Shown here piece after piece: positions 1 through 60,905 of a stretch of DNA of 64,000 bases (its first letter is position 1; every line of letters starts with the position of its first letter). Source of the DNA: Bacteroidota bacterium (GTDB taxonomy: Bacteria; Bacteroidota; Bacteroidia; Bacteroidales; FEN-979); the NCBI GenBank assembly GCA_026391835.1, contig JAPLDF010000074.1:1-64000 (forward strand). Reading direction: 5' to 3'. The position numbers were made by a program, and so were the translations under genes. The notes under the pieces were generated by a model. It was not told the DNA's origin. It made no database searches and worked only from the letters and a program-made list of their open reading frames with translations.

Positions 1-1668
1 GTTTGTTGCGGTGACCGTATAAGTTCCACCTGCCGAAACAGTAATGGCAGCGCTAGTTGCAGCGTTGGACCATGCATAACCTGTCCCACCAGTGGCAGTC
101 AGCATGACTGAACCGCCCTGGCAGAAGGTCACCGGACCGCCTGGGGTTATTATGGCTGTGGGAAGGGAATTAACCGTCACAAGGATGTTTTCAGAATCCG
201 TGCAGCCATTTGTGTTTGTTGCTGTGACGGTATAGGTGCCACCTGTCGAAACAGTAATGGAAGCTGCGGTTACAGCGTTGGACCAAAGATAACCAGTTCC
301 ACCAGAGGCTGTCAGCATAACTGAACCGCCCTGGCAGAAGGTCACCGGACCGCCTGGGGTAATTGCGGCTGAAGGAAGTGAATTGACGGTTACAAGGATG
401 TTTTCAGTATCCGTGCAGCCATTTGTGTTTGTTGCTGTGACGGTATAAGTCCCTCCTATTGAAACGGTAATGGCCTCATTGGTCGAAGCGTTGGACCACA
501 CATAACCAGCCCCGCCAGTGGCAGTCAGCATCACTGAACCGCCCTGGCAGAAGGTTACCGGACCGCCTGGGGTAATTGCGGCTGTGGGAAGTGAATTAAC
601 CGTCACAAGGATGTTTTCAGTATCGGTGCATCCATTGGCGTTGGTTGCGGTGACGGTATAGGTGCCACCGGCCGAAACATTAATGGCAGCGGTGGTTGCA
701 GCGTTGGACCACACATAACCAGCCCCGCCAGTGGCAGTCAGGATTACTGAACTGCCCTGGCAAAAAGTTGTCGGACCGCCTGGGGTAATTGCGGCTATGG
801 GAAGTGAATTAACCGTCACAAGGATGTTTTCAGTATCGGTGCATCCACTGGCGTTTGTCGCTGTGACGGTATAGATGCCACCGGCCGAAACATTTATGGC
901 AGCAGTGGTCGCAGCATTGGACCATATATAACCAGTTCCACCAGTGGCAGTCAGGATGACTGAACCGCCCTGGCAGAAGGTTACCGGACCGCCTGGGGTA
1001 ATTGCGGCTGTGGGAAGCGAATTAACCGTCACAAGGATGCTTTCAGTATCGGTGCATCCATTTGTGTTTGTCGCTGTGACGGTATAGGTGCCACCTGTCG
1101 AAACAGTAATGGAAGCTGCTGTTACAGCGTTGGACCAAAGATAACCAGTTCCACCAGAGGCTGTCAGCATAACTGAACCGCCCTGGCAGAAGGTCACCGG
1201 GCCGTTTGGGGTAATTCCGGCCGTGGGAAGAGAATTGACTGTCACAAGTAGGCTTTTCGTATCAGTGCATCCATTGGTGTTGGTTGTGGTGACCGTATAA
1301 GTTCCACCTGCCGAAACAGTAATGGCAGCGCTAGTTGCAGCGTTGGACCATGTATAACCTGTCCCGCCAGAGGCAGTCAGGATCACATGTCCCCCCTGGC
1401 AGAATGTAGAAGGCCCTCCGGCAGCAATGGCAGCAGTGGGGCCCGGGGTAACTGTTACGGATACACTTTCCGTATCACTGCATCCGCTCGCATTGGTTAC
1501 GGTTACAGTATAAATGCCGCCGGCATTCACACCAATTGCAGAACTGGTGGCGGCAGTTGACCATACATAGCTGGTTCCTCCCGAGGCAACCAGGTTCACC
1601 GAACCTCCCTGGCAAAAGGCAGTTGGCCCTCCCGGGGTTATCACCGCCGTTGGAATTGAAGCCGGCAG
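1..1668 (-). repeat. 213-bp tandem repeat array (8 units seen) encoding Ig-like domains
   Basis: The conserved anchor gcgttggacc (and variants) recurs at 62, 275, 488, 701, 914, 1127, 1340 and 1553, each step being exactly 213 bp (71 codons). The unit at 1553 is the most diverged. Blocks of roughly 85-110 bp are almost identical between non-adjacent units (275 and 1127; 62 and 1340), which points to recombination or gene conversion among units. The array continues past the left edge. Confidence 0.95.
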
Positions 1669-41274: not shown

Positions 41275-42756
41275 TTACTCCCCGTCCGCATGTCCGCATG
41301 TCCGCTTGTCCGCTTGTCCGCCTGTCCGCCTGTCCGCCTGTCCGCCTGTCCGCCCGTTCACTTTTCTCACCCACTCCCCGACAATTTTGAAAAACTCCGG
41401 CCGCAGGTGATGTTCCGGTGAGATATGAAGCAATTCGGCTGCAAAATCAATCTGGCAATACCGGGAATAGGTTTGAGATTTTTTGTAATAGTCAAGAAGA
41501 AACGGCAATGTTGTTTCATTCCGGCGCCTGATGGTTTCGCACAGTGCCAGGTTCACTTCGCGGACAGTTCCGATGCAATCGAACGGTTTTTCATTGGCAA
41601 CACCTGTAAGCTGATCGAACAACGGTTTCAATGATCCGTCCTCAAAAAGATTTTTCCCAAAAATATCCAGCAGCTGAACTTCACTGAGAAACGGTGAAAG
41701 TATGGCATAAGTAAAGAGGCATTTGGCGCAAACGCCGCACCACGTGTCAGTTTTGCTTCCCGCATTACAGCTTTTAAAAACAGGGTGATAGCGTGTAAAC
41801 CGGGCAAACAGCGAAGCGATCTGCAATTCATTCAGCGGGCGCAGGAAACTGAAATAGTTGATATCCCTGCAAATCCATTTTCTGACATATTCCCGGAAAT
41901 GAGTTTCAAACTGGAACGACTTTGAATATTGGTGGTTGATCTCAGTTCCTTCGATGGTCGCTTCACTGGCGCTCGATTCATTCGAGAGGGCAATATGGCG
42001 GTAACCTGTCAGAATGGCCGAAAGGACTGTAACAAAAGCGAGCATGGCGGAAAATGGCGTATGTCCGTTTAAAAATCCCTGATCATTCAGCCTCAATAAC
42101 TCCGGATCAATGACGCGGTGGATTTCGATGAGCCGGTCCAAGGCAATCCCATTTACTGCAATGGTTTCAAGACTTGCCCCGCGCGGATTCAGGATCAGCG
42201 GCAAACTGCCCGACGCTGCTCCAAGCAATTCGAGTGTCACTGCCGAATCTTTGCCTCCCCCGACAGGGATGATCACCGAATCATACGGTTGCAGGAACCC
42301 TCCTGCATCCGCCGGTGAAGCCGTGCTGGGATCCGGTTGCAGGACGCTGATCTCCATAAAATTGTCTTCGGTGACATCGATGCCGTTCAGGTAGAAAAAT
42401 TCGCCAAGCCCGTGAAAATAGAGTTTTTTCCACCAGGTTACCTGGTCATGATGAAGTGGAAATGGCCTGACAACAAGTGTTGGCGAACAGGCAGCTTTCC
42501 AGTAGCTGACAAGCTCGATCATCCCGAGGTTGAAGACGATGTTATCGAGCTTGTTGTCGAGATAATCGTCTGCCAGGAAAAAAGATTTCCGTGGTATAAA
42601 AAGGGTTGGGTGAAAGGTGTGCTGACCGGCAAGGTTAAAGGTAAACCGGATATCAAGGCCGCGGCTGGTTAGGGAATACTCCTGCTTTTCAAAGATAAAG
42701 AATGGATATTGTTTGCGTAATTGAAAAAAAGTTGACTGCCTGCTTGACCTTGCCAT
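41275..42756 (-). CDS. murL: UDP-MurNAc-L-Ala-L-glutamate epimerase-like protein (MurL)
   Basis: 493 residues. An ATP pyrophosphatase-type PP-loop IIPVGGGKDSAVTLELL (GGGKDS at 166-171) and a later Cys motif TWCGVCAKCLF are visible. MurL of Xanthomonas, as I recall, uses ATP to invert the L-glutamate of UDP-MurNAc-L-Ala-L-Glu and is encoded next to murD2; the pairing with a MurD gene here matches. This would replace glutamate racemase. Residues 467-493 (NGRTGGQADRRTGGQADKRT and following) are encoded by the octamer array that runs into the stop codon, and are probably a recent addition. Divergent from yqgE. Confidence 0.75.
   Translation of the reverse strand: MARSSRQSTFFQLRKQYPFFIFEKQEYSLTSRGLDIRFTFNLAGQHTFHPTLFIPRKSFFLADDYLDNKLDNIVFNLGMIELVSYWKAACSPTLVVRPFPLHHDQVTWWKKLYFHGLGEFFYLNGIDVTEDNFMEISVLQPDPSTASPADAGGFLQPYDSVIIPVGGGKDSAVTLELLGAASGSLPLILNPRGASLETIAVNGIALDRLIEIHRVIDPELLRLNDQGFLNGHTPFSAMLAFVTVLSAILTGYRHIALSNESSASEATIEGTEINHQYSKSFQFETHFREYVRKWICRDINYFSFLRPLNELQIASLFARFTRYHPVFKSCNAGSKTDTWCGVCAKCLFTYAILSPFLSEVQLLDIFGKNLFEDGSLKPLFDQLTGVANEKPFDCIGTVREVNLALCETIRRRNETTLPFLLDYYKKSQTYSRYCQIDFAAELLHISPEHHLRPEFFKIVGEWVRKVNGRTGGQADRRTGGQADKRTCGHADGE
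41278..41357. repeat. Octamer tandem array YYGTCCGC inside the murL 3' end
   Basis: Nine to ten 8-bp units (TTGTCCGC, CTGTCCGC, ATGTCCGC), the middle ones identical. Three units are 24 bp, so the encoded peptide repeats every eight residues (RTGGQADR/K). The array reaches to the stop codon. Confidence 0.95.
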
Positions 42757-43418: not shown

Positions 43419-43511
43419 GTCCGTCCGCCCGTCCGCCTGTCCGCCTGTCCGCCTGTCCTCCTGTCCGCCTGTCCGCCCGTCCGCTTGTCCGCTTGTCCTC
43501 CTGTCCGCCTG
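43419..43511. repeat. Octamer tandem array YYGTCCGC
   Basis: Eleven to twelve 8-bp units, two with GTCCTC instead of GTCCGC, in the gap between yqgE and the Mpv17-like gene. The orientation relative to the upstream gene is opposite to that at murL. Confidence 0.95.
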
Positions 43512-43591: not shown

Positions 43592-44305
43592 ATGAAGAGA
43601 TCAGATTTTATTGTTTTTGGAGTGATCATCCTGGCATTGCTCCCGTTTTTTATTTTCCCGCCGGTACTCAATGCCTACCAAGAGTTGAATGCTGCACACG
43701 GATACATCCTGAGCTTTATTAAATTCGCCCTGCTGGCAACGTTCGGTGAGTGCCTGGGGCTGAGGATCCGCATCGGAATCTACAACAGGCCCGGGTTTGG
43801 CTTGCTCCCCCGTGCCATCGTGTGGGGGTTTCTCGGGGTCACCATTAAATTTGCCTTTGTGATCTTCGGCGAAGGTGCACCCATGATGCTGAAAACCCTT
43901 GGTGTACATTTTTCGATGGCAAACCCCGGTGATGTATTGCGGCAACCAGGCTTCAGCTGGCTGAAATTGCTGTCCGCTTTCAGCGTCAGCGCCACGCTGA
44001 ACCTGTTTTTCGCCCCGGTTTTCATGACCTTCCACCGCATTACCGACATGCACATCATCAGTACCTCTGGTACACTCAGAGGCTTCTTCACTCCTATTCC
44101 TGTGAGAAAATATATCCGGGAAGCTGACTGGTCCGCATTCTGGGGTTTTGTCCTGAAAATGACCATTCCGATTTTCTGGATTCCCGCCCAGACGCTTAAT
44201 TTCATGCTCCCCGAAGGGTCCCGTATCCTCGTTGCGGCTGTTTACAGTGTGATCCTGGGCATCCTGCTTTCCCTGGCAAGCCTGAGGCACACGAAGCGGC
44301 ATTGA
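43592..44305 (+). CDS. Mpv17/PMP22-like membrane protein
   Basis: 237 residues with about five hydrophobic segments. The C-terminal segment FWIPAQTLNFMLPEGSRIL followed by a membrane helix matches the Mpv17/PMP22 pattern W-P-x-Q-x-x-N-F-x-x-V/L-P-x-x-x-R, and IKFAFVIFGEGAPMML earlier has the family's helix-turn. Mpv17 proteins are best known from mitochondria and peroxisomes; the bacterial role is unknown. It is 93 bp upstream of hpdB, which has its own promoter. Confidence 0.65.
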   Translation: MKRSDFIVFGVIILALLPFFIFPPVLNAYQELNAAHGYILSFIKFALLATFGECLGLRIRIGIYNRPGFGLLPRAIVWGFLGVTIKFAFVIFGEGAPMMLKTLGVHFSMANPGDVLRQPGFSWLKLLSAFSVSATLNLFFAPVFMTFHRITDMHIISTSGTLRGFFTPIPVRKYIREADWSAFWGFVLKMTIPIFWIPAQTLNFMLPEGSRILVAAVYSVILGILLSLASLRHTKRH

Positions 44306-44330: not shown

Positions 44331-44365
44331 TTTTGTATTTGGGTAACAATGAATCGTTAACTTTG
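44331..44365 (+). promoter_or_regulatory. Promoter of the hpdBCA operon
   Basis: TTTTG at 44331-44335 and TAACTTTG at 44358-44365, spacer 22 bp (a second TTTG at 44338-44341 gives 16 bp). ATG at 44399 follows after 33 nt. This argues against the in-frame TTG at 44333 as a start. Confidence 0.6.
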
Positions 44366-44398: not shown

Positions 44399-47068
44399 AT
44401 GCCTGATAAAACCCAAGCCCATGTTAACTATTACGGCAGTGAACCGGACGCCGAAGTAGCATCGCGCGATAGCAAGCGACAACCTACTGCCCGAGCAAAT
44501 GCTGCCAGGGAACTTTATTTTGAAGCCAAATCCTCGGTTTCCATGGAATTTCCCTACTGGTATACCCGCCGATGGGAACAACTGGAAGGTGAGATTCCAA
44601 TTATCAGGCGGGCTGAGGCATTGAAATCAGGTTTTGAACACCTTACCGCAACAATATATCCCGGTGAACTGCTCGCCATGGGCAAGGCATCTTACCTTCG
44701 GGGATCCTTTCCCATGCCCTGGCTTTCCGAAGCCTTTTTCATGGCTGCCGAAGACGACCTGTACAAAGAGGCCCAGGAATCGGGAAAACTGACCGCCGAC
44801 ACGTTTACCACCATGGGCAAAGGCGGCGGTAATGTGACGAAAAGTGCAGGCAGGGTGATCTCCATTGCCGGAAAATTCGGGCTGCGCGTGGAAGAGATGC
44901 CGGTCATGATCGAGGTGGCAAAGAAATGGAAGGATAAATCGGTGGATGATATCGGCCACAAATATGAGCAGCTGGTGCCCGGGTACAAAGAAAAAGAGGC
45001 CCTGATGCGTTCGGTGATCTGCATGTTCGACTCCGGCTACACCCTTCCGCAAGGACGTGAAGTGATGAACTATTATTACCCGCTGCAGTTCGGCATCGAC
45101 GGGATTATCAGGAATTGTGAAGACGGCATTGCCGATGTGGCCGGATATCCAGGGATGGACCGCCTCTATTTTTACAAGGCCGTCATCCTGACACTCGAAG
45201 GAATCAAACAATGGATTAAAAACTACGCGGAGGAAGCGCAGTTACTTGCCTCCATCGAAAAGGATGAAAAACAAAAAAATGAATACCTTGAGCTGGCCGA
45301 ACGCCTGGAATGGCTTTCCTCCAAACCTCCCCGCTCATTTCATGATGCGTTGCAGATGGTCTGGCTCTTCCATGCAGCCGTGCAGAACGAAGATGCCATT
45401 TCGGGATTGTCGCCAGGCCGTATCGGGCAGGTGCTCTATCCCTACTGGCAGCGCGACATCAAAAACGGGGTGCTTGACAGGGAAAAAAGCCTTGAACTGC
45501 TGGAATGCATGCGTATCAAATTTACCGAAATCGACTGCTTTGCATCCATGGGAGTTGTTGGAGGCGTACTTTCGGGCAACACCTTCAATAACCTCTGCGT
45601 TGGCGGCTTGTTAAAAGATGGTTCCTCAGCAGCGAATGAACTTGAAATGCTGATCCTTGAAGCGGGGATTACCTGCGATACACCGCAACCCACACTCTCC
45701 CTCTTATACGATGAAAAGCTCCCGGAAGAGTTCCTGCTCAAAGGCATTGAGTGTACCAAAATCGGTACAGGCTACCCGGCATGGGTCAACAACCAGGTGG
45801 CCATGGAATTTCTGCTCGGCAACTATGCCCATGAAGGCATGAATCCTGAAGAAGCCCGTGCATGGGGAATCGGGGGCTGTCTCGAAACATCGCCCGGGAG
45901 CTGGATGCCACTTGAAATCGACAATGAAATTCATTGGATACCAGGAGGCTCAGCCCCTGCCACCAGTGTTGGCGTGCATTTCCTGAACCTTCCCAAATTG
46001 CTGGAAGTTACCCTGTTCGACGGCATGGACATGCGCACCGGCCAGCGGATTTTCCCCCCGCACGGGTATGCGCTTGAGACCTATGACGAAACCTGGCAGG
46101 CTTTTAAGGATTATTTCAGCCGCGCCTGCCATGTACTTACGCTGACAAACAACATCCAGCATGATGCATGGCGGAAGATCTCCCCGTCGCTGGTCAATTC
46201 AATGCTGAAGCCCGATTGCCTCGCAAAAGGGAAGGATATCGGCCAGATGGGCTGCCGGTACAACACAACATTCAACATTGAAAGCTGTGGCACCACCAAC
46301 CTTGTGAATTCACTGGGTTCGCTGAAAATGAATGTCTATACCGAAAAGAATTACACCCTCAACCAGTACCGCGAAGCCATCCTTGCCAATTTCGGATACC
46401 AGACGGCACAGGAAACCGGTTCCTACTCGCTGATCGACCAGGTACCCACCGGGGATTACCACAACTGGAAAAAGATCCACAGCCAGAGCCTGGGCGCCCC
46501 GAAATTCGGCAACGACAATCCGTTCGTTGATGCCATCCTGAAGGATTGGGAAGACTGGTTCTGCGACATGGCGCACAATTACCGGTCACTGTACGATCAG
46601 CCAATGTATGCCTGCCAGATCTCCGTTTCCACGCATGGCCCGATGGGTGCTGTAACCCTCGCCAGTCCCGACGGGCGCTTAAGCGGCACCACTTTTTCCG
46701 ATGGCTCTGTATCGGCCTACCCGGGTACTGATAAAAACGGGCCCTACGCCCTGTTCAACTCGGCCACGTGCTGGAACCATGCTCAGTCGCAGAATTCACA
46801 ACTCAACATTAAAATTCATCCGTCCGTGGTGAATGGCCGCGAAGGGTCGCGGAAATTCCTCGAACTGATCCGTGCCTACCTTCGCAAAGGCGGTTTCCAC
46901 GTGCAATTCAACATCGTCGACTCACGGATGCTCAAACAGGCCCAGGCAGAACCCGATAAATTCCGGAGCCTGCTTGTCCGTGTTGCCGGTTTTACCCAGT
47001 ACTGGGTTGAACTGGGAAAACAGATCCAGGACGAAGTGATCTCCAGGACGGAGTACGAGGAGTTATAA
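44399..47068 (+). CDS. hpdB: Glycyl radical enzyme, 4-hydroxyphenylacetate decarboxylase large subunit type
   Basis: 889 residues from the ATG at 44399. The glycyl radical loop LLVRVAGFTQYW places the radical at Gly864; the thiyl Cys494 and Glu496 are in GIGGCLETSPGSW. Compared with the clostridial 4-hydroxyphenylacetate decarboxylase residues as I recall them (Ser344, Cys503, Glu505, His536, Glu637, Gly873), the same residue types occur here at 335, 494, 496, 527, 628 and 864, a constant offset of 9. That enzyme decarboxylates 4-hydroxyphenylacetate to p-cresol. The small Cys-rich subunit and the activase follow at once, completing the system. A related arylacetate substrate cannot be excluded. 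Oxygen-sensitive, so anaerobic life is implied. Confidence 0.88.
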   Translation: MPDKTQAHVNYYGSEPDAEVASRDSKRQPTARANAARELYFEAKSSVSMEFPYWYTRRWEQLEGEIPIIRRAEALKSGFEHLTATIYPGELLAMGKASYLRGSFPMPWLSEAFFMAAEDDLYKEAQESGKLTADTFTTMGKGGGNVTKSAGRVISIAGKFGLRVEEMPVMIEVAKKWKDKSVDDIGHKYEQLVPGYKEKEALMRSVICMFDSGYTLPQGREVMNYYYPLQFGIDGIIRNCEDGIADVAGYPGMDRLYFYKAVILTLEGIKQWIKNYAEEAQLLASIEKDEKQKNEYLELAERLEWLSSKPPRSFHDALQMVWLFHAAVQNEDAISGLSPGRIGQVLYPYWQRDIKNGVLDREKSLELLECMRIKFTEIDCFASMGVVGGVLSGNTFNNLCVGGLLKDGSSAANELEMLILEAGITCDTPQPTLSLLYDEKLPEEFLLKGIECTKIGTGYPAWVNNQVAMEFLLGNYAHEGMNPEEARAWGIGGCLETSPGSWMPLEIDNEIHWIPGGSAPATSVGVHFLNLPKLLEVTLFDGMDMRTGQRIFPPHGYALETYDETWQAFKDYFSRACHVLTLTNNIQHDAWRKISPSLVNSMLKPDCLAKGKDIGQMGCRYNTTFNIESCGTTNLVNSLGSLKMNVYTEKNYTLNQYREAILANFGYQTAQETGSYSLIDQVPTGDYHNWKKIHSQSLGAPKFGNDNPFVDAILKDWEDWFCDMAHNYRSLYDQPMYACQISVSTHGPMGAVTLASPDGRLSGTTFSDGSVSAYPGTDKNGPYALFNSATCWNHAQSQNSQLNIKIHPSVVNGREGSRKFLELIRAYLRKGGFHVQFNIVDSRMLKQAQAEPDKFRSLLVRVAGFTQYWVELGKQIQDEVISRTEYEEL

Positions 47069-47093
47069 ACAACGTAACGGTGAAATAAAGACA

Positions 47094-47351
47094 ATGGAAG
47101 AGACCGGTTGCAAAGATTGCAGGTATTACCTGCCTGTTGATGTTTTCAGGGGCATGTGCAAACTAAGTAAAGATCCAATCACCCCTGATGATCCATTGTG
47201 TGCCGCGATGGAACACATTCCCAAATGCAAATTCTGCGCATACTATACGACCGACAAGGATTACCTGGGCAAATGCATGGGATCCATCCTGGCATATCCC
47301 GACATGATCGCCAGCAAATGCGCAGATTTTAAATGGGACAAACAAAATTAG
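47094..47351 (+). CDS. hpdC: 4-hydroxyphenylacetate decarboxylase small Fe-S subunit type
   Basis: 85 residues with eight cysteines in two equal sets: Cys6, 9, 22, 36 and Cys45, 48, 61, 76 (CxxC-x12-C-x13/14-C). This pseudo-twofold pattern, with GMCKLSKDPI and GKCMG, is that of the decarboxylase gamma subunit, which holds two [4Fe-4S] clusters. In the clostridial protein one ligand of the first cluster is His, as I recall; here all eight positions are Cys. Presence of this subunit separates the system from choline lyase and pyruvate formate-lyase types. It overlaps the activase gene by 19 bp. Confidence 0.85.
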   Translation: MEETGCKDCRYYLPVDVFRGMCKLSKDPITPDDPLCAAMEHIPKCKFCAYYTTDKDYLGKCMGSILAYPDMIASKCADFKWDKQN

Positions 47352-48325
47352 CCCGCGGGCATATTTTCGACATCCAGGGGTTCTCATTGCACGATGGCCC
47401 TGGTTGCCGCAGTTTGATTTTTTTCAAAGGGTGCACCCTGGAATGCGCATGGTGCTCAAATCCGGAAGGAATCTCCTTCGCTCCTGAACCTCTTTACCTG
47501 GATTCCAAATGTACCCTTGATGGACTGTGTGTTGATGCCTGTTCACACGGTGCCATAACTTGTTCACCAGGCGGGGCATACGGCCGGTTGACTTTCGACC
47601 GGGAAATTTGTGCCAGGTGCAGCACATACAGTTGCGCAAAAGTATGCTGTTCGGGAGCAGTGAGGATTGGCGGGTACGAAATTTCCATTGAGGAGTTGTA
47701 TGCAACCATCAACCGCGACCGCCAGTTCTGGGGCGCAGGCGGCGGCATCACCCTCACCGGCGGCGAACCATTCGCCCAGCCGGAATTTGCCCATGACCTT
47801 CTGAAACGCTGTTTTGATGCCTACATTCACACAGCCGTTGAAACCTGTGGCAATGTCCGGTGGGAAAATTATGAAAAATCGCTCCCCTATATTGACTGGA
47901 TCTTTTTTGATCTGAAAACGATGAACGGATCAGAAAAGCTCCAGACCGATGGGCTACCTGCCGATCCCACCGGTCCGCCATTCCCAGGGTTTACCCGGTC
48001 ATCCATTTCCCAAATCCTATCAAATGCCAGCCGCATCGCCAATGAATTTCCCGGGCACATGGTGTTCCGCCTCCCGTTGATTCCCGGGTTTAATGATGAT
48101 GCCGGCAACATCCATGAAACAGCCCGTTTCATACGGTCAACCGGCCGGAATGAGGTCAATGTCCTTCCGCTTCATCACCTGGGCCGGGAAAAGTACAGGC
48201 TCACCGGTAAAACATATTATACAGGCGATTTTAAAATCCCCGGGAAAGATCATCTTGATGAAATCGCATCTCAATTCACTTCTTATGGAATCCACTGCTA
48301 TATAGGGAGTGAAACACCTTTTTAA
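47333..48325 (+). CDS. hpdA: Glycyl radical enzyme activase (radical SAM)
   Basis: 330 residues. The radical SAM motif CTLECAWC gives Cys34, Cys38 and Cys41. A ferredoxin-like insert follows with Cys60, 66, 70, 77 and Cys93, 96, 101, 105; in the first of these the usual second Cys is replaced by Asp63. The TGGEP motif at 142-146 contacts S-adenosylmethionine. It abstracts the hydrogen from Gly864 of the adjacent large subunit. Start ATG at 47333 overlaps hpdC, so translation is likely coupled. Confidence 0.9.
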   Translation: MGQTKLARGHIFDIQGFSLHDGPGCRSLIFFKGCTLECAWCSNPEGISFAPEPLYLDSKCTLDGLCVDACSHGAITCSPGGAYGRLTFDREICARCSTYSCAKVCCSGAVRIGGYEISIEELYATINRDRQFWGAGGGITLTGGEPFAQPEFAHDLLKRCFDAYIHTAVETCGNVRWENYEKSLPYIDWIFFDLKTMNGSEKLQTDGLPADPTGPPFPGFTRSSISQILSNASRIANEFPGHMVFRLPLIPGFNDDAGNIHETARFIRSTGRNEVNVLPLHHLGREKYRLTGKTYYTGDFKIPGKDHLDEIASQFTSYGIHCYIGSETPF

Positions 48326-48358: not shown

Positions 48359-50530
48359 ATGATCTTGTTAAACCTGAGAGACATGTTAAAAGGGGTTTTA
48401 TTTCCCGTTTTCCTGCTGCTCTTGCTTCCCATGCCTGGTTTTTCGGAAGGCACCAAACAGTTTGTTCCGCACGCAACAGCAGAGGGCCAGCTTTGTATTG
48501 ATAAATACCGGAACGATTTTGGTTTTTTCAACGCAGCACCCGAATTCAGAATCAACATTCACATTGCCAGCCTGACCGAAAAGTTTTATTTTGGCCTGGG
48601 TGCAATTACAAGGAACGATACAGGGGTTGTTCGGTACCAGGTAAAGGACCCTGCCGGGAACATCGTTATCGGACCCGCTCCCGTACCCGTTTCGGGGCAG
48701 GGATATATAAGTTCCTACGATCAGGATACCATTGGCCCGTTTGTAGCCGACAGCGGCTATAACCCCCTGCAGCACATACCCGCAATTACCGGTGATTACT
48801 CACTTGAATTTTTCTATCCCCCCGACCAGGTTGGCATATATACGATTAGCAGCTACATGAAGTTTAAGTATTTTGACATTACTGTGGTGGATGCAGCCAA
48901 CCATCCGATCCAGGGTAGAGTATGGTCAAAAGCGTGGCAGTTTAATTGCGGCCCGGTTGAACCGCCCCCGCTGACTAACAGCCGTTTTTACGGAACAATG
49001 TTTGTCCTTTCCGACGACAGCATCGTGACCAGTGTGAATTGCAACGGTTTTATCGGTGGCACCTTCTCCATTTCGAGCAACAGGACCGGATGCTCAGCAA
49101 CAGGCAATATCGCCATTGACAGGCAGTCACGCACTGGGTTTCACACCTATCCGCAATACAAGATTTTCCTGTCCGATCCCGACAGCACGATTTTCCCAAC
49201 CGGCAAGGCAAATCCCGGGATCATCATGCCAATCACCATTAACAACAATTGCGCTGCGGGTTCGGTCGACCTGGGGGTGAAAGTAACCCAGGATGGGATC
49301 ATTGAAATCCTGGTCGAAGTTGATCCCAAGCCCGGTGTCGATCCCCGCGATGTGAAACTTACATCAAATGTATATGCCAACCCGGGGGGTAACGGGTACA
49401 ACATCATCCGGTGGAACGGGAAGGACGGTTTGGGAAAACCGGTTGCCAATGGCGTAACAGCCTCGTCAATCATCAGGTTTATCCACGGCATCACCCATTT
49501 GCCCATCTACGATATTGAATACAACGACCGTGGGTACATCGTCGAGGTCATCAGGCCGCCTGGCCAGAAGCCGGATATGTATTGGGATGACAGCCTTCTG
49601 CCCGACAGTACCTCCAACCTCAGCGGTTGCAATGATGTTTTCGGATGCCATTTCTGGGATATGGCTACCGGCGATACCAATACCGTAAACTCATGGTGGT
49701 ATGTTGCAAGTTCAACCGCCCCTGCGATCTCGTTCACAGTTAAAAGGACGCCGGGTTCACCCGGTGTGATCAGCGGCGATAAGTCTTTTTGTGAAGGAGG
49801 GGTAACAAGAACCTACTTCATCAGGCGTGAACCCAACTCATCCTCCTACAACTGGTCATACTCGGGAACAGGTGTCACGCTCACGCCCAATGACACGTCG
49901 GCAATCGTCAGCTATGACGTCACGGCAACTTCAGGAACCCTTGCAGTCTCAGGCAGTAACCCTGATTGTGGTACCGGGCCGGGATCCACCCTGCCAATCA
50001 CCTTCTACCCGCCTCCGCAGGTATCACTTTCCGGTTTCGATTCAATTTGTTACAATGAACCTTCATTCCCAATCTCAGGCGGCACCCCGCCCGGCGGGGA
50101 ATACACTGTAAACGGGTCCCCTGCCGACATTTTTGATCCGGCATCCGCAGGCACAGGAAACCACCAGGTCATATACAAATACACCGATTCGCATGGATGT
50201 AAAAATGCCGACAGTGCCACAGTGTTTGTCAGGCATGGAAGGGAGTGCGAAATTGTGATATGGGTACCCAATGCTTTTACACCCGACGGCGACGGGGTAA
50301 ATGACATCTTCAGGCCGGTTTCGAATAATATCAGGCAATTCAGCATGAAAATCTACAACCGTTACGGGCAACTGGTATTCACCTCCTCGAATCCGGAGAA
50401 CGGTTGGGACGGGACTTTCCATGATGGAAGATCTCCAGAGGGAAATTACATTTATATCATTGTTTACCAGTCGTCCTTTGCGCCACCTGAAAACACCACC
50501 CTCACCGGGAACGTCGTTTTGGTTCGGTAG
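48359..50530 (+). CDS. T9SS type B sorted secreted protein
   Basis: 723 residues. The N-terminus carries a signal peptide; the start may be the ATG at 48359 or at 48383 (MLKGVLFPVFLLLLLPMPG). A long beta-rich region is followed by an Ig/PKD-like stretch (about 470-620) and a C-terminal domain with VPNAFTPDGDGVNDIFRP, MKIYNRYGQLVFTS and GWDGTFHDGRSPEGNYIYII, the CHU_C/gliding motility type B sorting domain. It should be exported by Sec, carried over the outer membrane by the type IX machinery and attached to the surface. Function of the N-terminal part is unknown. Confidence 0.85.
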   Translation: MILLNLRDMLKGVLFPVFLLLLLPMPGFSEGTKQFVPHATAEGQLCIDKYRNDFGFFNAAPEFRINIHIASLTEKFYFGLGAITRNDTGVVRYQVKDPAGNIVIGPAPVPVSGQGYISSYDQDTIGPFVADSGYNPLQHIPAITGDYSLEFFYPPDQVGIYTISSYMKFKYFDITVVDAANHPIQGRVWSKAWQFNCGPVEPPPLTNSRFYGTMFVLSDDSIVTSVNCNGFIGGTFSISSNRTGCSATGNIAIDRQSRTGFHTYPQYKIFLSDPDSTIFPTGKANPGIIMPITINNNCAAGSVDLGVKVTQDGIIEILVEVDPKPGVDPRDVKLTSNVYANPGGNGYNIIRWNGKDGLGKPVANGVTASSIIRFIHGITHLPIYDIEYNDRGYIVEVIRPPGQKPDMYWDDSLLPDSTSNLSGCNDVFGCHFWDMATGDTNTVNSWWYVASSTAPAISFTVKRTPGSPGVISGDKSFCEGGVTRTYFIRREPNSSSYNWSYSGTGVTLTPNDTSAIVSYDVTATSGTLAVSGSNPDCGTGPGSTLPITFYPPPQVSLSGFDSICYNEPSFPISGGTPPGGEYTVNGSPADIFDPASAGTGNHQVIYKYTDSHGCKNADSATVFVRHGRECEIVIWVPNAFTPDGDGVNDIFRPVSNNIRQFSMKIYNRYGQLVFTSSNPENGWDGTFHDGRSPEGNYIYIIVYQSSFAPPENTTLTGNVVLVR

Positions 50531-50662: not shown

Positions 50663-51985
50663 ATGCCCATGAAAGAGACACCAATCAATTACGATGTCGT
50701 TCAACGACATATCCATGAAAGTAAAATCCGGAACATTGGCAAGGCATCTATCCGTGAAATCAAGCGGTTGATCAATGGAATCGAGACAGAGACCGGTGAG
50801 AAATTCATCCGCATGGAGATGGGCGTTCCGGGGCTTCCCGCCACCCACATTGGTGTGCAGGCAGAGATTGAAGCCCTTCAAAAGGGGGTCGCGGCAATAT
50901 ATCCCGATATCGAAGGCACTCCTGTTCTCAAAAAGGAGGCGGCACGCTTTGTCAAATTATTCCTGGATATTGACGTTGATGCTGCGAATTGTGTGCCCAC
51001 CGTTGGAAGCATGCAGGGTGGATTTGCTGCATTCCTCACTTTTTCGAAAATCCACAGGGACAAGGACACCACCTTGTTCATCGATCCGGGGTTCCCGGTT
51101 CATCACCAGCAGCACAAGGTCCTGGGGCAAAAATTCGAGACTTTCGATGTATACAATTTCCGTGGTGACAAACTCCGCGATAAACTTGAAAGCTATTTTT
51201 CCAAGGGGAATATCCATTCCGTGCTTTACTCCAACCCGAACAATCCGTCGTGGATATGCTTTACAGATAAAGAACTCAGGATCATCGGTGAACTTGCAAC
51301 CAAGTATGATGTGATCATCATCGAGGACCTGGCCTATTTTGCCATGGATTTCCGCAAGGACTACTCAAAACCCGGTGAACCGCCATACCAGCCAACGGTC
51401 GCAAAATATACCGACAACTATCTCCTCCTGATTTCCAGTTCCAAAGCATTCAGTTACGCCGGCCAGCGCATCGGGCTCATGATCCTTTCAAACAAGTTGT
51501 TCAATACCCAGGCTCCCGACCTGCTCCGTTACTACTCCACCGATATTGTCGGCAGGGCCCTGATCTACGGCACAGTGTATGCGCTGAGCGCAGGTACTGC
51601 CCATTCAACCCAGTACGCCCTGGCTGCCATGCTGAAAGCCGCGAACGACGGCACATTCGATTTCGTGGAAGTGGTTAAGGAATACGGGGCAAAGGCCAAG
51701 ATCATGAAGGAGATGTTTACCGGCAACGGGTTTTCAATTGTATACGACAAAGACGAGGACGAACCTATCGGCGACGGTTTCTATTTCACATTCTCTTACC
51801 CGGGCTTTACCGGCGAAGAGTTGCTCAGGGAACTGTTGTATTATGGCATCAGTGCCATTGCCCTTAGCATCACGGGAAGCGAACGCATGGAAGGTATCCG
51901 TGCCTGTGTTTCCCTGGTCAAACGTGAGCAGTTCCCCGTGCTGGAAGAAAGATTGAAGAAATTCAGGGAAAACCACCAGGATTAG
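50663..51985 (+). CDS. Aminotransferase class I/II (PLP-dependent)
   Basis: 440 residues of fold type I. The PLP Lys261 is in SSSKAFSYAGQRIG, with YSNPNNPSW (Asn194) and EDLAYF (Asp222, Tyr225) at the cofactor. The substrate cannot be read with confidence; the fold group includes aspartate, aromatic and branched-chain enzymes. The next genes encode a 2-oxoacid:ferredoxin oxidoreductase, so the natural reading is removal of an amino group to make a 2-oxoacid for it. The gap downstream (193 bp) contains an octamer array, so it may be a separate transcript. Confidence 0.88.
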   Translation: MPMKETPINYDVVQRHIHESKIRNIGKASIREIKRLINGIETETGEKFIRMEMGVPGLPATHIGVQAEIEALQKGVAAIYPDIEGTPVLKKEAARFVKLFLDIDVDAANCVPTVGSMQGGFAAFLTFSKIHRDKDTTLFIDPGFPVHHQQHKVLGQKFETFDVYNFRGDKLRDKLESYFSKGNIHSVLYSNPNNPSWICFTDKELRIIGELATKYDVIIIEDLAYFAMDFRKDYSKPGEPPYQPTVAKYTDNYLLLISSSKAFSYAGQRIGLMILSNKLFNTQAPDLLRYYSTDIVGRALIYGTVYALSAGTAHSTQYALAAMLKAANDGTFDFVEVVKEYGAKAKIMKEMFTGNGFSIVYDKDEDEPIGDGFYFTFSYPGFTGEELLRELLYYGISAIALSITGSERMEGIRACVSLVKREQFPVLEERLKKFRENHQD

Positions 51986-52002
51986 CGAAATGGTTGAATC
52001 AC

Positions 52003-52056
52003 TCCGCCCGTCCGCCTGTCCGCCTGTCCGTTCGTCCGCTTGTCATCCTGTCCTCC
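52003..52056. repeat. Octamer tandem array YYGTCCGC (degenerate)
   Basis: Six to seven 8-bp units with decay toward the right (GTTCGTCC, GTCATCCT), starting 17 bp after the aminotransferase stop. Confidence 0.85.
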
Positions 52057-52178: not shown

Positions 52179-52409
52179 ATGGCAAAAATCAAAGGTGATA
52201 TCGTGATCAACACCGAACGTTGCAAGGGCTGTGAAGTATGTCTTGCCGCATGCCCATTCACGGTGATCGCGATGTCGAAGGAAGTGAACAGCAAAGGATA
52301 TCATTTCGCAATGAAAGTAAACGACGAATGTACGGGCTGCACCAACTGTGCCCTTGTCTGCCCCGACGGCGTAATCACCGTCTACCGGGCCAAAGTCGCA
52401 ACAGAATAA
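52179..52409 (+). CDS. 2-oxoacid:ferredoxin oxidoreductase, ferredoxin (delta) subunit
   Basis: 76 residues with two [4Fe-4S] motifs, CKGCEVCLAACP and CTGCTNCALVCP. It passes electrons from the catalytic subunits to free ferredoxin. First gene of a tight four-gene operon (gaps 22, 2 and 51 bp). Confidence 0.93.
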   Translation: MAKIKGDIVINTERCKGCEVCLAACPFTVIAMSKEVNSKGYHFAMKVNDECTGCTNCALVCPDGVITVYRAKVATE

Positions 52410-52431
52410 AAAATCAAAAAACAAATAAGCA

Positions 52432-53514
52432 ATGGGTGAACTAAGATTAATGAAAGGTAACGAAGCTGTTGCCGAAGCCGCCATTCGCGCAGGCTGCGAC
52501 GGTTATTTCGGATACCCTATCACGCCCCAGTCCGAAGTGATGGAATACCTGATGGCTGAAAAGCCGTTCGAGCGGACTGGCATGGTGGTTCTTCAGGCTG
52601 AAAGCGAAGTAGCTGCCATTAACATGCTTTACGGCGGCGCCGGAACAGGAAAAATGGTAATGACCTCCTCCTCAAGTCCGGGTGTCAGCCTCATGCAGGA
52701 AGGAATCAGCTATATGGCAGGCGCTGAGTTGCCCGCCGTTATCGTCAATATTGTTCGGGGCGGCCCCGGGCTTGGAACCATCCAGCCCTCCCAGGCCGAC
52801 TATTTCCAGGCGGTTAAAGGCGGTGGTCACGGCGATTACAAAATGCTCGTACTTGCCCCGGCTTCGGTGCAGGAGATGTGCGACCATGTGAAACTTGGTT
52901 TTGAAAAAGCATATCAATACCGCACGCCGGTAATGATCCTCTCGGATGGCGCCATTGGCCAGATGATGGAAAAAGTGGTCCTGTTCGACCAGGTCCCCCG
53001 GCGTACCGATGCCGAACTGATCGAACAATGCCCCTGGGCTTCCAACGGCCGTCCAAAAACCCGTAACCACAACATCATCACGTCGCTTGACCTCGATCCG
53101 GCCGGGCAGGAACGGGTGAACCTGAAACTCCAGGCCAAATACAAAGTCATGGAGCAGAATGAAGTGCTTTACGAGGAGATCCAGTGCGAGGATGCAGAAT
53201 ACCTCTTTGTCGCCTTCGGACTTTCGGCCCGTATTTGCCAGAAAGCCATTGACATGGCCCGTGCAAAAGGAATTAAAGTCGGTTTGTTCCGTCCCATAAC
53301 CCTCTATCCATTCCCGTCAATTGAAGTTTCAAATGTCGGGAACCGCGTGAAAGGCATCCTGGTCGTTGAAATGAACGCCGGACAAATGATCGAAGATGTC
53401 AAACTTTCGGTAGGCTGTAAAGTGAAAATCGAACATTTCGGCCGTTTTGGCGGTATCATCCCGGCTCCGGATGAAGTTGTAAGAGCCCTTGAACAAAAAA
53501 TTATCGGAGGTTAG
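52432..53514 (+). CDS. 2-oxoacid:ferredoxin oxidoreductase alpha subunit (VorB/KorA type)
   Basis: 360 residues. MKGNEAVAEAAIRAGCDGYFGYPITPQSE is the N-terminal signature of the pyrimidine-binding subunit; VKGGGHGDYKMLVLAPASVQEM follows. With the TPP subunit it oxidatively decarboxylates a 2-oxoacid to acyl-CoA and reduces ferredoxin. The sequence is of the branched-chain/2-oxoglutarate type; substrate not decidable from sequence alone. Confidence 0.9.
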   Translation: MGELRLMKGNEAVAEAAIRAGCDGYFGYPITPQSEVMEYLMAEKPFERTGMVVLQAESEVAAINMLYGGAGTGKMVMTSSSSPGVSLMQEGISYMAGAELPAVIVNIVRGGPGLGTIQPSQADYFQAVKGGGHGDYKMLVLAPASVQEMCDHVKLGFEKAYQYRTPVMILSDGAIGQMMEKVVLFDQVPRRTDAELIEQCPWASNGRPKTRNHNIITSLDLDPAGQERVNLKLQAKYKVMEQNEVLYEEIQCEDAEYLFVAFGLSARICQKAIDMARAKGIKVGLFRPITLYPFPSIEVSNVGNRVKGILVVEMNAGQMIEDVKLSVGCKVKIEHFGRFGGIIPAPDEVVRALEQKIIGG

Positions 53515-53516
53515 TT

Positions 53517-54329
53517 ATGGAAGAACAATTCGCAAAGACCGAAATTCATAAACCGGAAAACATCGTCTATAAAAAGACCGACCTGATGGTCGACCGGCCG
53601 CTGAGCTATTGCCCGGGCTGTGGCCATGGCACCGCACACCGCATGCTGATGGAGGTGATCGAAGAGATGGGCATACAGGATAAAACCATCGGTGTTTCAC
53701 CGGTTGGCTGTTCGGTGCTGGCTTATGATTTCCTCGACATCGACATGATCGGTGCAGCCCACGGAAGAGCTCCCGCCCTGGCTACTGCCATCAAACGCAT
53801 GTGGCCAAATCACTTTGTTTTTACCTACCAGGGCGATGGCGACCTTGCCGCAATTGGCACCGCCGAGACCATTCATGCCTGTAACCGTGGCGAAAACATC
53901 ACAATCATCTTTATCAACAACGGTATTTATGGTATGACCGGTGGCCAGATGGCCCCGACAACCCTCCCGGGAATGCGCTCTTCCACCTCACCTTACGGCA
54001 GGGATGTGCCTACCATGGGGCACCCGCTCAAGATCACCGAACTTGTTGCCCAGCTTCCTGGTGTATATTATGTTACCCGCCAGGCAGTTCATACGCCGAA
54101 TAATGTCCGGAAAACCAAGAAAGCAATCCGCAAGGCTTTCGAACTCCAAAAAGAGAACAAGGGATTAAGTTTCATTGAAATCGTATCCAATTGCAATTCC
54201 GGATGGAAAATGACGCCTGTACAATCCAACAAATGGATGGAGGAAAATATGTTCCCGTTCTATGAACTTGGCGACATAAAGGTTGACGGAAAACTCGTGG
54301 AAAAGAAGGCTACGGCTGAAAAAGAATAA
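53517..54329 (+). CDS. 2-oxoacid:ferredoxin oxidoreductase beta subunit (TPP-binding)
   Basis: 270 residues. The Fe-S/TPP subunit shows SYCPGCGHG, the TPP motif GDGDLAAIGTAETIHA ending IIFINNG, and YGMTGGQMAPTT. Starts 2 bp after the alpha subunit stop. Its C-terminus has the KMTPVQSNKWMEENM-type tail of the KorB group. Confidence 0.92.
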   Translation: MEEQFAKTEIHKPENIVYKKTDLMVDRPLSYCPGCGHGTAHRMLMEVIEEMGIQDKTIGVSPVGCSVLAYDFLDIDMIGAAHGRAPALATAIKRMWPNHFVFTYQGDGDLAAIGTAETIHACNRGENITIIFINNGIYGMTGGQMAPTTLPGMRSSTSPYGRDVPTMGHPLKITELVAQLPGVYYVTRQAVHTPNNVRKTKKAIRKAFELQKENKGLSFIEIVSNCNSGWKMTPVQSNKWMEENMFPFYELGDIKVDGKLVEKKATAEKE

Positions 54330-54333
54330 ACTC

Positions 54334-54372
54334 CGTTCGAAATTCAAGATTCGTTATTCAATATTCGATATT
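54334..54372. repeat. Short heptamer-like near-repeat (attcgaa/attcaat)
   Basis: Near-copies of 7-bp attcgNN fill the gap right behind the beta-subunit stop codon, before the gamma subunit. Confidence 0.55.
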
Positions 54373-54380
54373 TATTTGAC

Positions 54381-54935
54381 ATGACAGAAGAGATCATTAT
54401 TGCCGGATTCGGAGGACAGGGTGTCCTTTCAATGGGGAAAATTCTCGCCTATTCAGGGGTGATGCAAAATAAAGAGGTCAGCTGGATGCCGTCCTACGGG
54501 CCTGAGATGCGCGGCGGAACAGCAAATGTTACAGTGATCATCAGCGATGAGCGGATCAGTTCACCCATCCTGAATGCTTACGACACGGCCATCATCCTCA
54601 ATCAGCAATCGATGGACAAGTTTGAAAAGACAGTTAAACCAGGTGGATTGCTCATATACGATCCCAATGGACTCACCCGGCTGCCGGAGCGGAAAGACAT
54701 CAATATCTACTCCATCGAAGCAGCCGATGAAGCCGGAAAGCGCGGTCTCTCGAAAATTTTCAATATGATCGTCCTGGGAGGTTTTCTGAAACTGAAACCA
54801 TTAGTTGCACCAGAATTTATTCACAAAGGACTTGAGAAATCCCTTCCTGCGCGCCACCATGCCCTCATCCCCGAGAATGAAAAAGCCATTGAGATCGGGA
54901 AAGAGCTTCTGAAACCGGTGCATATTCTCAATTAG
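54381..54935 (+). CDS. 2-oxoacid:ferredoxin oxidoreductase gamma subunit
   Basis: 184 residues. IIAGFGGQGVLSMGKILAYSG is the classic gamma-domain start, and PSYGPEMRGGTANVTVIIS the CoA-binding region. Completes the four-subunit enzyme. A strong hairpin terminator lies at 55016-55045. Confidence 0.93.
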   Translation: MTEEIIIAGFGGQGVLSMGKILAYSGVMQNKEVSWMPSYGPEMRGGTANVTVIISDERISSPILNAYDTAIILNQQSMDKFEKTVKPGGLLIYDPNGLTRLPERKDINIYSIEAADEAGKRGLSKIFNMIVLGGFLKLKPLVAPEFIHKGLEKSLPARHHALIPENEKAIEIGKELLKPVHILN

Positions 54936-54936
54936 G

Positions 54937-54987
54937 ACATTTAGACAAGCGGACAAGCAGACAAGCGGACGGGCGGACATGTGGACG
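54937..54987. repeat. Octamer tandem array GCGGACRR
   Basis: Six to seven units of gacaagcg/gacgggcg starting directly after the TAG stop of the gamma subunit, same strand orientation as at 60830. Confidence 0.9.
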
Positions 54988-55015
54988 ATAAAGTTTATAG
55001 TTTAAAAGGATTCGG

Positions 55016-60829: not shown

Positions 60830-60905
60830 ACGGGCGGACAAGCGGACAAGCGGACGGGCGGACAAGCGGACGGGCGGACGGGCGGACGGGCGGACAAGCG
60901 GACGA
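60830..60905. repeat. Octamer tandem array GCGGACRR
   Basis: Nine to ten 8-bp units of gcggacaa/gcggacgg beginning on the base after the TGA stop of the phosphotransferase-like gene. Confidence 0.95.

What the first reader, a model, noticed from the sequence alone, without database searches (positions are those of the whole stretch)
44399..48325. Complete 4-hydroxyphenylacetate decarboxylase-type glycyl radical system (hpdB-hpdC-hpdA) in a Bacteroidota
All six catalytic positions known for the clostridial decarboxylase (Ser, Cys, Glu, His, Glu, Gly) are found at one constant offset of 9 residues. The eight-Cys small subunit and the radical SAM activase follow with overlap. This predicts p-cresol formation. 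As I recall, Tannerella forsythia is a Bacteroidota precedent, but such systems are uncommon in the phylum. The numbering of the clostridial enzyme is recalled, not looked up.
Basis: partly seen in the sequence, partly recalled or inferred. Interest (0 to 1): 0.72.

Follow-up and report, generated by a model that had tools for sequence, protein, structure and literature searches.

The report
p-Cresol-forming radical decarboxylase in Bacteroidales
This stretch encodes a complete, well-conserved copy of a known oxygen-sensitive enzyme system that should turn 4-hydroxyphenylacetate (a tyrosine breakdown product) into p-cresol; it is ordinary in kind, but it sits in a family of uncultured Bacteroidales where it is common, while it looks rare in the rest of the phylum.

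Summary
Confirmed. hpdB-hpdC-hpdA at 44399-48325 is a 4-hydroxyphenylacetate decarboxylase (HPAD) system. HpdB passes the curated HPAD model (1436.5 bits, cut-off 1150; indoleacetate decarboxylase 712.7, cut-off 1100), matches the solved C. scatologenes enzyme at 433 of 852 positions, keeps 9 of 10 checked active-site residues, and lies inside the HPAD clade of a tree. HpdC passes its model; HpdA misses the HPAD-activase cut-off but passes the general activase model. A known kind, new member. Added here: (1) 28 of 43 genomes of the window's family pass the HPAD cut-off, against 10 of 393 sampled in the order, 5 of them this family, and 1 of 395 sampled in the phylum, the window itself. (2) The locus looks ancestral in the family and lost in places; one relative keeps an apparent in-frame stub of hpdB. 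(3) HpdC here has Cys where the 19 clostridial HpdC seen have His, and the 24 Cys-type systems seen all have Asp for one Cys in an HpdA motif. (4) A tyrosine-to-HPA supply by downstream genes is plausible but unproven: the aminotransferase there occurs without hpd too.

The parts
44358..44365 (+). TAACTTTG, a candidate Bacteroidota -7 promoter box upstream of hpdB
   Evidence: Seen; TTAACTTTG occurs in 7 of 10 aligned upstream regions (window, L003, L004, L005, L006, L007, L031); G016 has TATCTTTG; L041 and G033 lack it; two further regions (L008, L023) were under 60 nt and dropped. The consensus TAnnTTTG is recalled.
44399..47068 (+). hpdB, large catalytic subunit of 4-hydroxyphenylacetate decarboxylase, 889 aa
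   Evidence: NF033715 1436.5 bits, cut-off 1150; 2y8n_A 433/852 identical, catalytic residues kept; tree; low-confidence model with best PDB match 2y8n_A
45878..45886 (+). codons of thiyl radical Cys494, Leu495 and Glu496
   Evidence: alignment to 2y8n_A Cys503/Glu505
46280..46282 (+). Glu628 codon, equivalent of Glu637 that takes the substrate's p-hydroxyl proton; absent in IAD
   Evidence: alignment; role from passages of PMC6181972 and PMC4979209
46988..46990 (+). Gly864 codon, glycyl radical site in RVAGF
   Evidence: alignment to Gly873
47094..47351 (+). hpdC, small subunit with 8 Cys (6, 9, 22, 36, 45, 48, 61, 76); Cys6 stands where clostridial HpdC has His
   Evidence: NF033716 62.1 bits, cut-off 50; 2y8n_B E 0.0017; 45 distinct HpdC compared and 5 more
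47333..48325 (+). hpdA, radical SAM activase; C34xxxC38xxC41 and two ferredoxin-like motifs, the first with Asp (C60xxD63xxC66xxxC70)
   Evidence: TIGR02494 265.1 bits over cut-off 174.35; NF033717 288.6 bits under cut-off 420; alignment
48359..50530 (+). T9SS type B sorted protein; neighbour, probably unrelated to the function
   Evidence: TIGR04131 55.2 bits, cut-off 35; present in relatives without hpd
50663..51985 (+). class I/II PLP aminotransferase of no named subfamily; possible source of 4-hydroxyphenylpyruvate
   Evidence: Pfam PF00155 77.4 bits, cut-off 19.7; 53 NCBIfam matches, 25 shown, the best 71.7 bits under its cut-off 415; present in 31 of the 32 family genomes searched, with or without hpd
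52179..54935 (+). four-subunit VOR-type 2-oxoacid:ferredoxin oxidoreductase (52179-52409, 52432-53514, 53517-54329, 54381-54935); possible source of 4-hydroxyphenylacetyl-CoA
   Evidence: VorB NF005507 535.2 bits, cut-off 399; the delta and beta subunits match such models under their cut-offs, as does gamma (103.8 of 235); 37.9-51.6% identical per subunit to the genes beside hpdBCA in clostridial genome G545

Best explanation
HpdA (radical SAM) uses SAM and a [4Fe-4S] cluster to put a radical on Gly864 of HpdB; the radical moves to Cys494; bound 4-hydroxyphenylacetate loses its phenolic proton to Glu628 and an electron to the Cys494/Glu496 pair, CO2 leaves, and p-cresol is released. HpdC, expected to hold two [4Fe-4S] clusters, docks on HpdB and is needed for active enzyme; a role in quenching the radical has been proposed for it but not confirmed. 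The system was probably present at this locus in an ancestor of the window's family and has been lost in some members. Shown here: gene content, residues, clade, distribution, sites without hpd. Inferred from the studied clostridial enzyme: the chemistry, the clusters and the product.
For: Curated HPAD model passed, IAD model not. 433/852 identity to the solved enzyme with R220, S335, G336, F396, C494, E496, H527, E628, G864 kept. All seven IAD rows in that alignment lack the Glu at 637, which PMC6181972 gives as marking HPAD against IAD (passages). Tree: HPAD clade 100, IAD group 99. A small subunit is present, as in HPAD and not IAD. Order hpdB-hpdC-hpdA kept in the relatives in which all three were found. 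In 25 aligned HpdB (24 relatives, 57-91% identical to the window's), all ten checked active-site columns are invariant. Chemistry from passages of PMC6181972 and PMC4979209; HpdC role from passages of PMC12358834 and PMC6181972.
Against: HpdA falls under the curated HPAD-activase cut-off (288.6 of 420) and leads the IAD-activase model by only 16 bits. Its first ferredoxin-like motif lacks one Cys. The HpdC match to the solved small subunit is weak (E 0.0017). Predicted structures are poor: mean pLDDT 53.1 for HpdC, 58.9 for HpdB, so neither geometry nor clusters were tested. I saw no biochemistry for a member of this clade.
Confidence: 0.92

Rival explanations
1. The enzyme is an HPAD homologue whose true substrate is another arylacetate (phenylacetate to toluene, indoleacetate to skatole, or a ring-substituted hydroxyphenylacetate).
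For: The protein is only about half identical to the tested enzyme, and Gly532 of its active site is Ser. Related enzymes of the superfamily use such substrates.
Against: Glu628 and His527 are invariant in 25 aligned sequences; IAD lacks this Glu; the C. scatologenes enzyme did not convert phenylacetate (passage of PMC4979209); Ser at 532 is found in 13 of the 17 clostridial-family HPAD rows as well (2y8n not counted).
Confidence: 0.05
2. The system is part of a local tyrosine-to-p-cresol pathway: the aminotransferase (50663) gives 4-hydroxyphenylpyruvate, the four-subunit oxidoreductase (52179-54935) gives 4-hydroxyphenylacetyl-CoA plus reduced ferredoxin, an ADP-forming acyl-CoA synthetase elsewhere frees HPA with ATP, then HPAD acts. 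(An addition to the best explanation, not an alternative to HPAD itself.)
For: Same-strand neighbours 2.3 kb downstream. One search was given 32 of the 43 family genomes; 21 of the 32 pass the HPAD cut-off, and in 16 of these 21 hpdB and the aminotransferase lie on one contig within about 11 kb (coordinates). A clostridial genome (G545) has the same kind of oxidoreductase beside hpdBCA, and the C. scatologenes enzyme was shown to oxidise 4-hydroxyphenylpyruvate (PMC13285125, Results read). Two long ADP-forming synthetase candidates are in the own genome, and a hydroxyproline dehydratase (1147.4 bits, cut-off 1100) fits amino acid fermentation.
Against: The aminotransferase is in 31 of the 32 family genomes searched, including ones without hpd, and the aminotransferase-oxidoreductase block stands at the site without hpd in G016, G017 and G025, so proximity may only be old shared position. 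Known VOR enzymes act on branched-chain 2-oxoacids. A separate IOR-like protein (546.9 bits, cut-off 650.9) could do the arylpyruvate step. No acyl kinase or phosphate acyltransferase was found among the aminotransferase and nine other neighbours scanned with Pfam; the rest of the genome was not searched for them. The Discussion of PMC13285125 says most HPADs are not near tyrosine genes.
Confidence: 0.3
3. The enzyme scavenges 4-hydroxyphenylacetate made by other microbes and serves to consume protons inside the cell (pH or proton-gradient gain), independent of tyrosine use. (Also compatible with HPAD activity.)
For: [quoted passage not shown] hpd is patchy in the family while the aminotransferase is nearly universal in the genomes searched.
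Against: No transporter was recognised among the neighbours scanned, though the frame directly upstream, 43592-44305, matches no NCBIfam or Pfam family and its function is open.
Confidence: 0.4
4. Non-functional or decaying copy.
For: Signs of loss in relatives.
Against: All three frames are open, catalytic residues are kept and the sequence is strongly conserved, and a promoter-like box is kept.
Confidence: 0.02

Closest known systems
4-Hydroxyphenylacetate decarboxylase HpdBC/CsdBC with activase HpdA (C. scatologenes 2y8n/2yaj; C. difficile)
   Same: Gene order B-C-A, large-subunit model, catalytic residues, small Fe-S subunit, radical SAM activase
   Different: HpdC ligand position Cys in place of His; first ferredoxin-like motif of HpdA is CxxDxxCxxxC in place of four Cys; HpdA under the curated cut-off; different neighbours
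Tannerella forsythia HPAD (A0A1D3UC78)
   Same: HPAD in the same phylum, already in print (PMC6181972, passages)
   Different: An oral species (recalled); its sequence was not compared here
C. scatologenes hpdDEFG-hpdJ-hpdK-hpdBCA cluster (PMC13285125)
   Same: A four-subunit VOR-type oxidoreductase lies near hpdBCA
   Different: Here it is downstream, next to an aminotransferase, 37.9-51.6% identical per subunit to the genes beside hpdBCA in the unnamed clostridial genome G545; no hpdJ- or hpdK-like gene among the neighbours scanned
Indoleacetate decarboxylase (IAD)
   Same: Nearest family in the tree
   Different: No small subunit, no Glu at position 637; the window protein scores 712.7 of the 1100 needed

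Membership tests
4-hydroxyphenylacetate decarboxylase | Large subunit passes curated HPAD equivalog cut-off | tested here: met
   1436.5 bits, cut-off 1150
4-hydroxyphenylacetate decarboxylase | Catalytic Gly, Cys, Glu1 and active-site Ser, His, Glu2 | tested here: met
   S335 C494 E496 H527 E628 G864
4-hydroxyphenylacetate decarboxylase | Fe-S small subunit HpdC encoded beside it | tested here: met
   NF033716 62.1 bits, cut-off 50
4-hydroxyphenylacetate decarboxylase | HpdC first-cluster residue His as in the clostridial protein (a feature of the clostridial members, not of the curated family model) | tested here: not met
   Cys6 instead. 24 of 50 distinct HpdC have Cys and 26 His (45, with L084 read by eye; 5 more, all His). 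That this His is a ligand is recalled. I take it as variation within the family, since both forms occur next to HpdB that group as HPAD.
4-hydroxyphenylacetate decarboxylase | Dedicated radical SAM activase HpdA | tested here: inconclusive
   Best match is the HPAD activase model but 288.6 of 420 bits; general activase model passed, 265.1 over 174.35
4-hydroxyphenylacetate decarboxylase | Falls in the HPAD clade | tested here: met
   support 100 for the 51-row HPAD clade in a 69-row tree, quick method
4-hydroxyphenylacetate decarboxylase | Forms p-cresol from 4-hydroxyphenylacetate | not testable with these tools
   needs an anoxic assay
Indoleacetate decarboxylase | Passes IAD cut-off; lacks Glu2 and small subunit | tested here: not met
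   712.7 of 1100; Glu2 and small subunit present
Phenylacetate decarboxylase PhdB | Groups with PhdB | not tested
   no PhdB sequence was at hand
Fumarate-adding enzymes (benzylsuccinate synthase) | Closest to Bss/Ass large subunits | tested here: not met
   TutD 169 bits, MasD 167.8, against 1004.3 for HPAD

The most novel reading that the evidence does not exclude
In this Bacteroidales family HPAD is a retained ancestral trait with a remodelled set of iron-sulfur ligands: an all-cysteine HpdC (His to Cys at the first cluster) paired with an activase whose first ferredoxin-like cluster would be held by Cys and Asp (CxxDxxCxxxC). All 24 Cys-type pairs seen have the Asp form, and 11 of 14 His-type pairs have four Cys there, so the two changes may be functionally tied and shift the redox potentials that switch the glycyl radical on and off, perhaps for water that is only intermittently anoxic. 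These bacteria would then be an unrecorded source of p-cresol outside animal guts.
Probability: 0.2. Interest if true: 0.5.

Novelty: new member of a known kind. Interest (0 to 1): 0.3.

Why it matters
p-Cresol is toxic, malodorous and a precursor of a uraemic toxin, and is usually discussed for gut bacteria such as C. difficile. HPAD in 28 of 43 genomes of one uncultured Bacteroidales family points to a further, probably environmental, source (5 of the 39 related loci come from records titled Lac Pavin). Present and absent pairs within one genus allow a test of what HPAD is for, which PMC13285125 calls unknown. The His/Cys and Cys/Asp changes offer a natural experiment on the unknown role of the HpdC clusters.

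Tried and rejected
Fumarate-adding or other glycyl radical subgroup: rejected by models, PDB search and tree. IAD: rejected.

A dedicated tyrosine-to-cresol operon as the main claim: held back, because the aminotransferase occurs in nearly all family genomes searched, with or without hpd.

Recent gain of hpdBCA at this site: not favoured. G016 lacks hpdBCA in an otherwise matching gene order but has, after a promoter-like box, a 21-residue in-frame peptide matching HpdB starts (score 42 against 25 N-termini; 0 of 1000 shuffles reach it, but the best reaches 41, and I chose the 21 residues by eye). The DNA evidence is weaker: against 8 relatives the best match of the whole 205-base stretch scores 44 (300 shuffles: mean 20.5, largest 34), but it covers the region before the peptide; matches over the peptide's own DNA score 29-32, under the largest shuffle. 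G039 has an hpdA that matches only from residue 43, with a transposase-like frame upstream (the IS3 likeness is recalled, and an assembly join is possible). G015, G017 and G025 show no stub (best scores 16-20). HpdB and aminotransferase identities correlate over 136 same-locus pairs (Spearman 0.80; the p-value ignores relatedness; 54 pairs with three genomes whose hpd lies elsewhere were set aside).

AlphaFold models were too poor for geometry: mean pLDDT 53.1 (HpdC) and 58.9 (HpdB). The HpdB model's best PDB match is nevertheless 2y8n_A, E 1.3e-53, TM 0.63.

A literature source for His as HpdC ligand: not found in the open library.
Full report
What is there. The window carries three same-strand genes: hpdB 44399-47068, hpdC 47094-47351, hpdA 47333-48325. 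hpdC and hpdA overlap by 19 nt; hpdB and hpdC are 25 nt apart.

Identity. HpdB scores 1436.5 bits on the NCBIfam HPAD model (cut-off 1150), 712.7 on IAD (cut-off 1100) and 409.9 or less on the other ten families listed. The best solved structure is 2y8n, HPAD of C. scatologenes (1004.3 bits; next 345.1; TutD 169). In a MAFFT alignment 433 of 852 positions are identical. Of ten positions checked (nine from a passage of PMC4979209, plus the recalled Gly873), nine match: R220, S335, G336, F396, C494, E496, H527, E628, G864. Gly532 is Ser523; besides 2y8n only four HPAD rows have Gly there, all from the clostridial family, while 13 other rows of that family have Ser. All ten columns are invariant in 25 aligned HpdB (24 relatives, 57-91% identical to the window's).

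Tree. In a 69-row tree of rows of at least 690 aa (quick method, SH-aLRT, midpoint root), the HPAD rows form one clade (100) and the IAD rows another (99). Within HPAD, the 18 clostridial rows plus a Negativicutes row group together (99), and the window lies among 30 Bacteroidota-type rows (99), of which one is titled Ignavibacteria and one Alphaproteobacteria. The tool warns of long branches meeting among the other glycyl radical rows. The Alphaproteobacteria row (L009) is nearly identical to a Bacteroidales row (L041) and is probably a binning error (inference).

Small subunit and activase. HpdC passes its model (62.1, cut-off 50). HpdA has the HPAD activase model as best match but does not reach its cut-off (288.6 of 420); it passes the general glycyl radical activase model (265.1 over 174.35). 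In 45 distinct HpdC sequences found at E 1e-6, the residue three before the first invariant Cys is Cys in 24 and His in 21 (L084 was trimmed by the script and read by eye). That search had missed the HpdC of six clostridial loci; looked up afterwards, these give five more distinct sequences, all with His. In all: 24 Cys, 26 His; the His set holds all 19 distinct clostridial-family sequences seen and seven others (L018, L019, L021, L022, L035, L087, L089). From memory, this His is a ligand of the first [4Fe-4S] cluster in the solved structure; no held paper gave it. In HpdA the first ferredoxin-like motif is CxxDxxCxxxC. Over 38 distinct HpdC-HpdA pairs, all 24 Cys-type pairs have Asp there; of 14 His-type pairs 11 have four Cys and 3 (L021, L022, L035) have Asp or Glu (eight rows that the script could not parse were read by eye from these calls). 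Five clostridial HpdA left out of the pairs (L134, L135, L140, L141, L142) also show four Cys. Fisher p 3e-7 on the 38 ignores relatedness, so it shows an association along one phylogeny, not independent events; the three exceptions show that the Asp or Glu form can occur with His. In Pyrococcus ferredoxin an Asp in such a place binds the cluster (recalled).

Distribution. In the window's family 28 of 43 genomes pass the HPAD cut-off, and five more (G010, G029, G040, G041, G042) have pieces that look like HPAD (for G042 also hpdC and hpdA). In an even draw from the order, 10 of 393 pass, five of them in this family. In an even draw from the phylum, 1 of 395 passes, the window itself. In the rows shown for these two draws at most two candidates per genome were scored, so a miss is possible. 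A scan of named genomes with a single query gave 39 distinct loci, most titled Bacteroidales or Bacteroidetes, others titled Ignavibacteria, WOR-3, Methanomicrobiales, Thermoplasmata (two), Euryarchaeota, Alphaproteobacteria, Negativicutes and Clostridium among them; five of the 39 titles name Lac Pavin.

Locus history. The order Mur ligase gene-41275-yqgE-hpdBCA-aminotransferase-oxidoreductase recurs in relatives, with 43592 and 48359 present in some. G016, G017 and G025 have it without hpdBCA; G015 lacks 48359 too. G016 keeps an apparent 21-residue in-frame stub of hpdB (peptide: 0 of 1000 shuffles as good, best shuffle 41 against 42; the peptide's DNA alone is not above shuffles). In G039 hpdA matches only from residue 43, next to a transposase-like frame, with no hpdB or hpdC in the 1.7 kb left on the contig. 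G032 and G034 carry a more distant hpdB (72-73% identical) elsewhere, and their yqgE-aminotransferase site has none. HpdB and aminotransferase identities correlate across 136 same-locus pairs (Spearman 0.80). The reading that fits best: ancestral in the family at this site, lost more than once, and probably gained elsewhere by transfer in at least two members (inference).

Supply of substrate. The four-subunit oxidoreductase is of the VOR type (VorB 535.2 bits, cut-off 399), the type to which C. scatologenes HpdE belongs (PMC13285125, Results and Discussion read). It is 47.9, 44.5, 51.6 and 37.9% identical (D, B, A, C) to the genes beside hpdBCA in clostridial genome G545. But the aminotransferase is in 31 of the 32 family genomes searched (32 of the 43 were given), regardless of hpd. 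Of these 32, 21 pass the HPAD cut-off; in 16 of the 21 hpdB and the aminotransferase are on one contig within about 11 kb, in five they are on different contigs (coordinates). The genome also has an IOR-like protein (546.9 bits, cut-off 650.9), two long ADP-forming synthetase candidates and a trans-4-hydroxyproline dehydratase. Among the aminotransferase and nine other neighbours scanned with Pfam there is no acyl kinase or phosphate acyltransferase; 43592, 41275 and 56160 match nothing. A tyrosine-to-p-cresol route is possible in the cell but not shown.

Literature. T. forsythia HPAD is in print (PMC6181972, passages). Eight searches of the open library listed no paper whose title or abstract start reports HPAD in freshwater Bacteroidales; I saw only the listed top rows, and subscription papers are not held. 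Papers opened: PMC13285125 (outline, sections 5 and 14), PMC6181972, PMC4979209 and PMC12358834 (passages), PMC11138216 (a find with no hits). Martins 2011, Yu 2006 and Andrei 2004 were seen only as references.

Verdict. This is a new member of a known family, with a modest variation in its predicted iron-sulfur ligands and an informative distribution.

Noticed in passing
L073:8692-11184 (-) in G025 and L074:8500-10998 (-) in G016: Two same-genus genomes without HPAD carry a glycyl radical enzyme of about 830 aa with IAD-like active-site letters (no Glu2), best NCBIfam match IAD at 731.2 and 750.3 bits but under the 1100 cut-off, placed outside HPAD plus IAD in the tree, with an activase frame directly after it and no small subunit seen between: a candidate further arylacetate decarboxylase subgroup.
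   Followed up: partly
L022, L027, L036, L039: HPAD large-subunit genes, three of them cut, on contigs titled Methanomicrobiales, Thermoplasmata (two) and Euryarchaeota; L027 also has a phenylacetate-CoA ligase-like gene (536.4 bits, cut-off 646.3) close by. Whether the contigs are truly archaeal was not settled.
   Followed up: partly
window 41284-41354, 43423-43511, 52002-52032, 54943-54988, 60833-60904: Arrays of an 8-bp GC-rich unit (GTCCGCCT/GGCGGACA); the 23-base pattern matches 83 times in the window's genome and in 5 of the 42 other family genomes. The tool's reversed-pattern control is no control here, since it is the same repeat in another phase.
   Followed up: partly
window 50663-51985: Aminotransferase found in 31 of 32 family genomes searched and next to a VOR-type oxidoreductase, yet far below the curated cut-off of each of the 25 NCBIfam families shown.
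   Followed up: no
window 43592-44305: Frame directly upstream of hpdB with long hydrophobic stretches and no NCBIfam or Pfam match; kept in four genomes (G015, G016, G017, G025) at the site without hpd.
   Followed up: partly
[quoted passage not shown]
   Followed up: yes
L083 (G039:C18): hpdA matching only from residue 43 beside a transposase-like frame: a second sign of hpd loss, or an assembly join.
   Followed up: partly
window 1-1404: 6.6 tandem copies of a 213-bp unit in a frame on the - strand (1-3051) that runs off the window's edge, a repeat-rich surface-type protein by its look.
   Followed up: no
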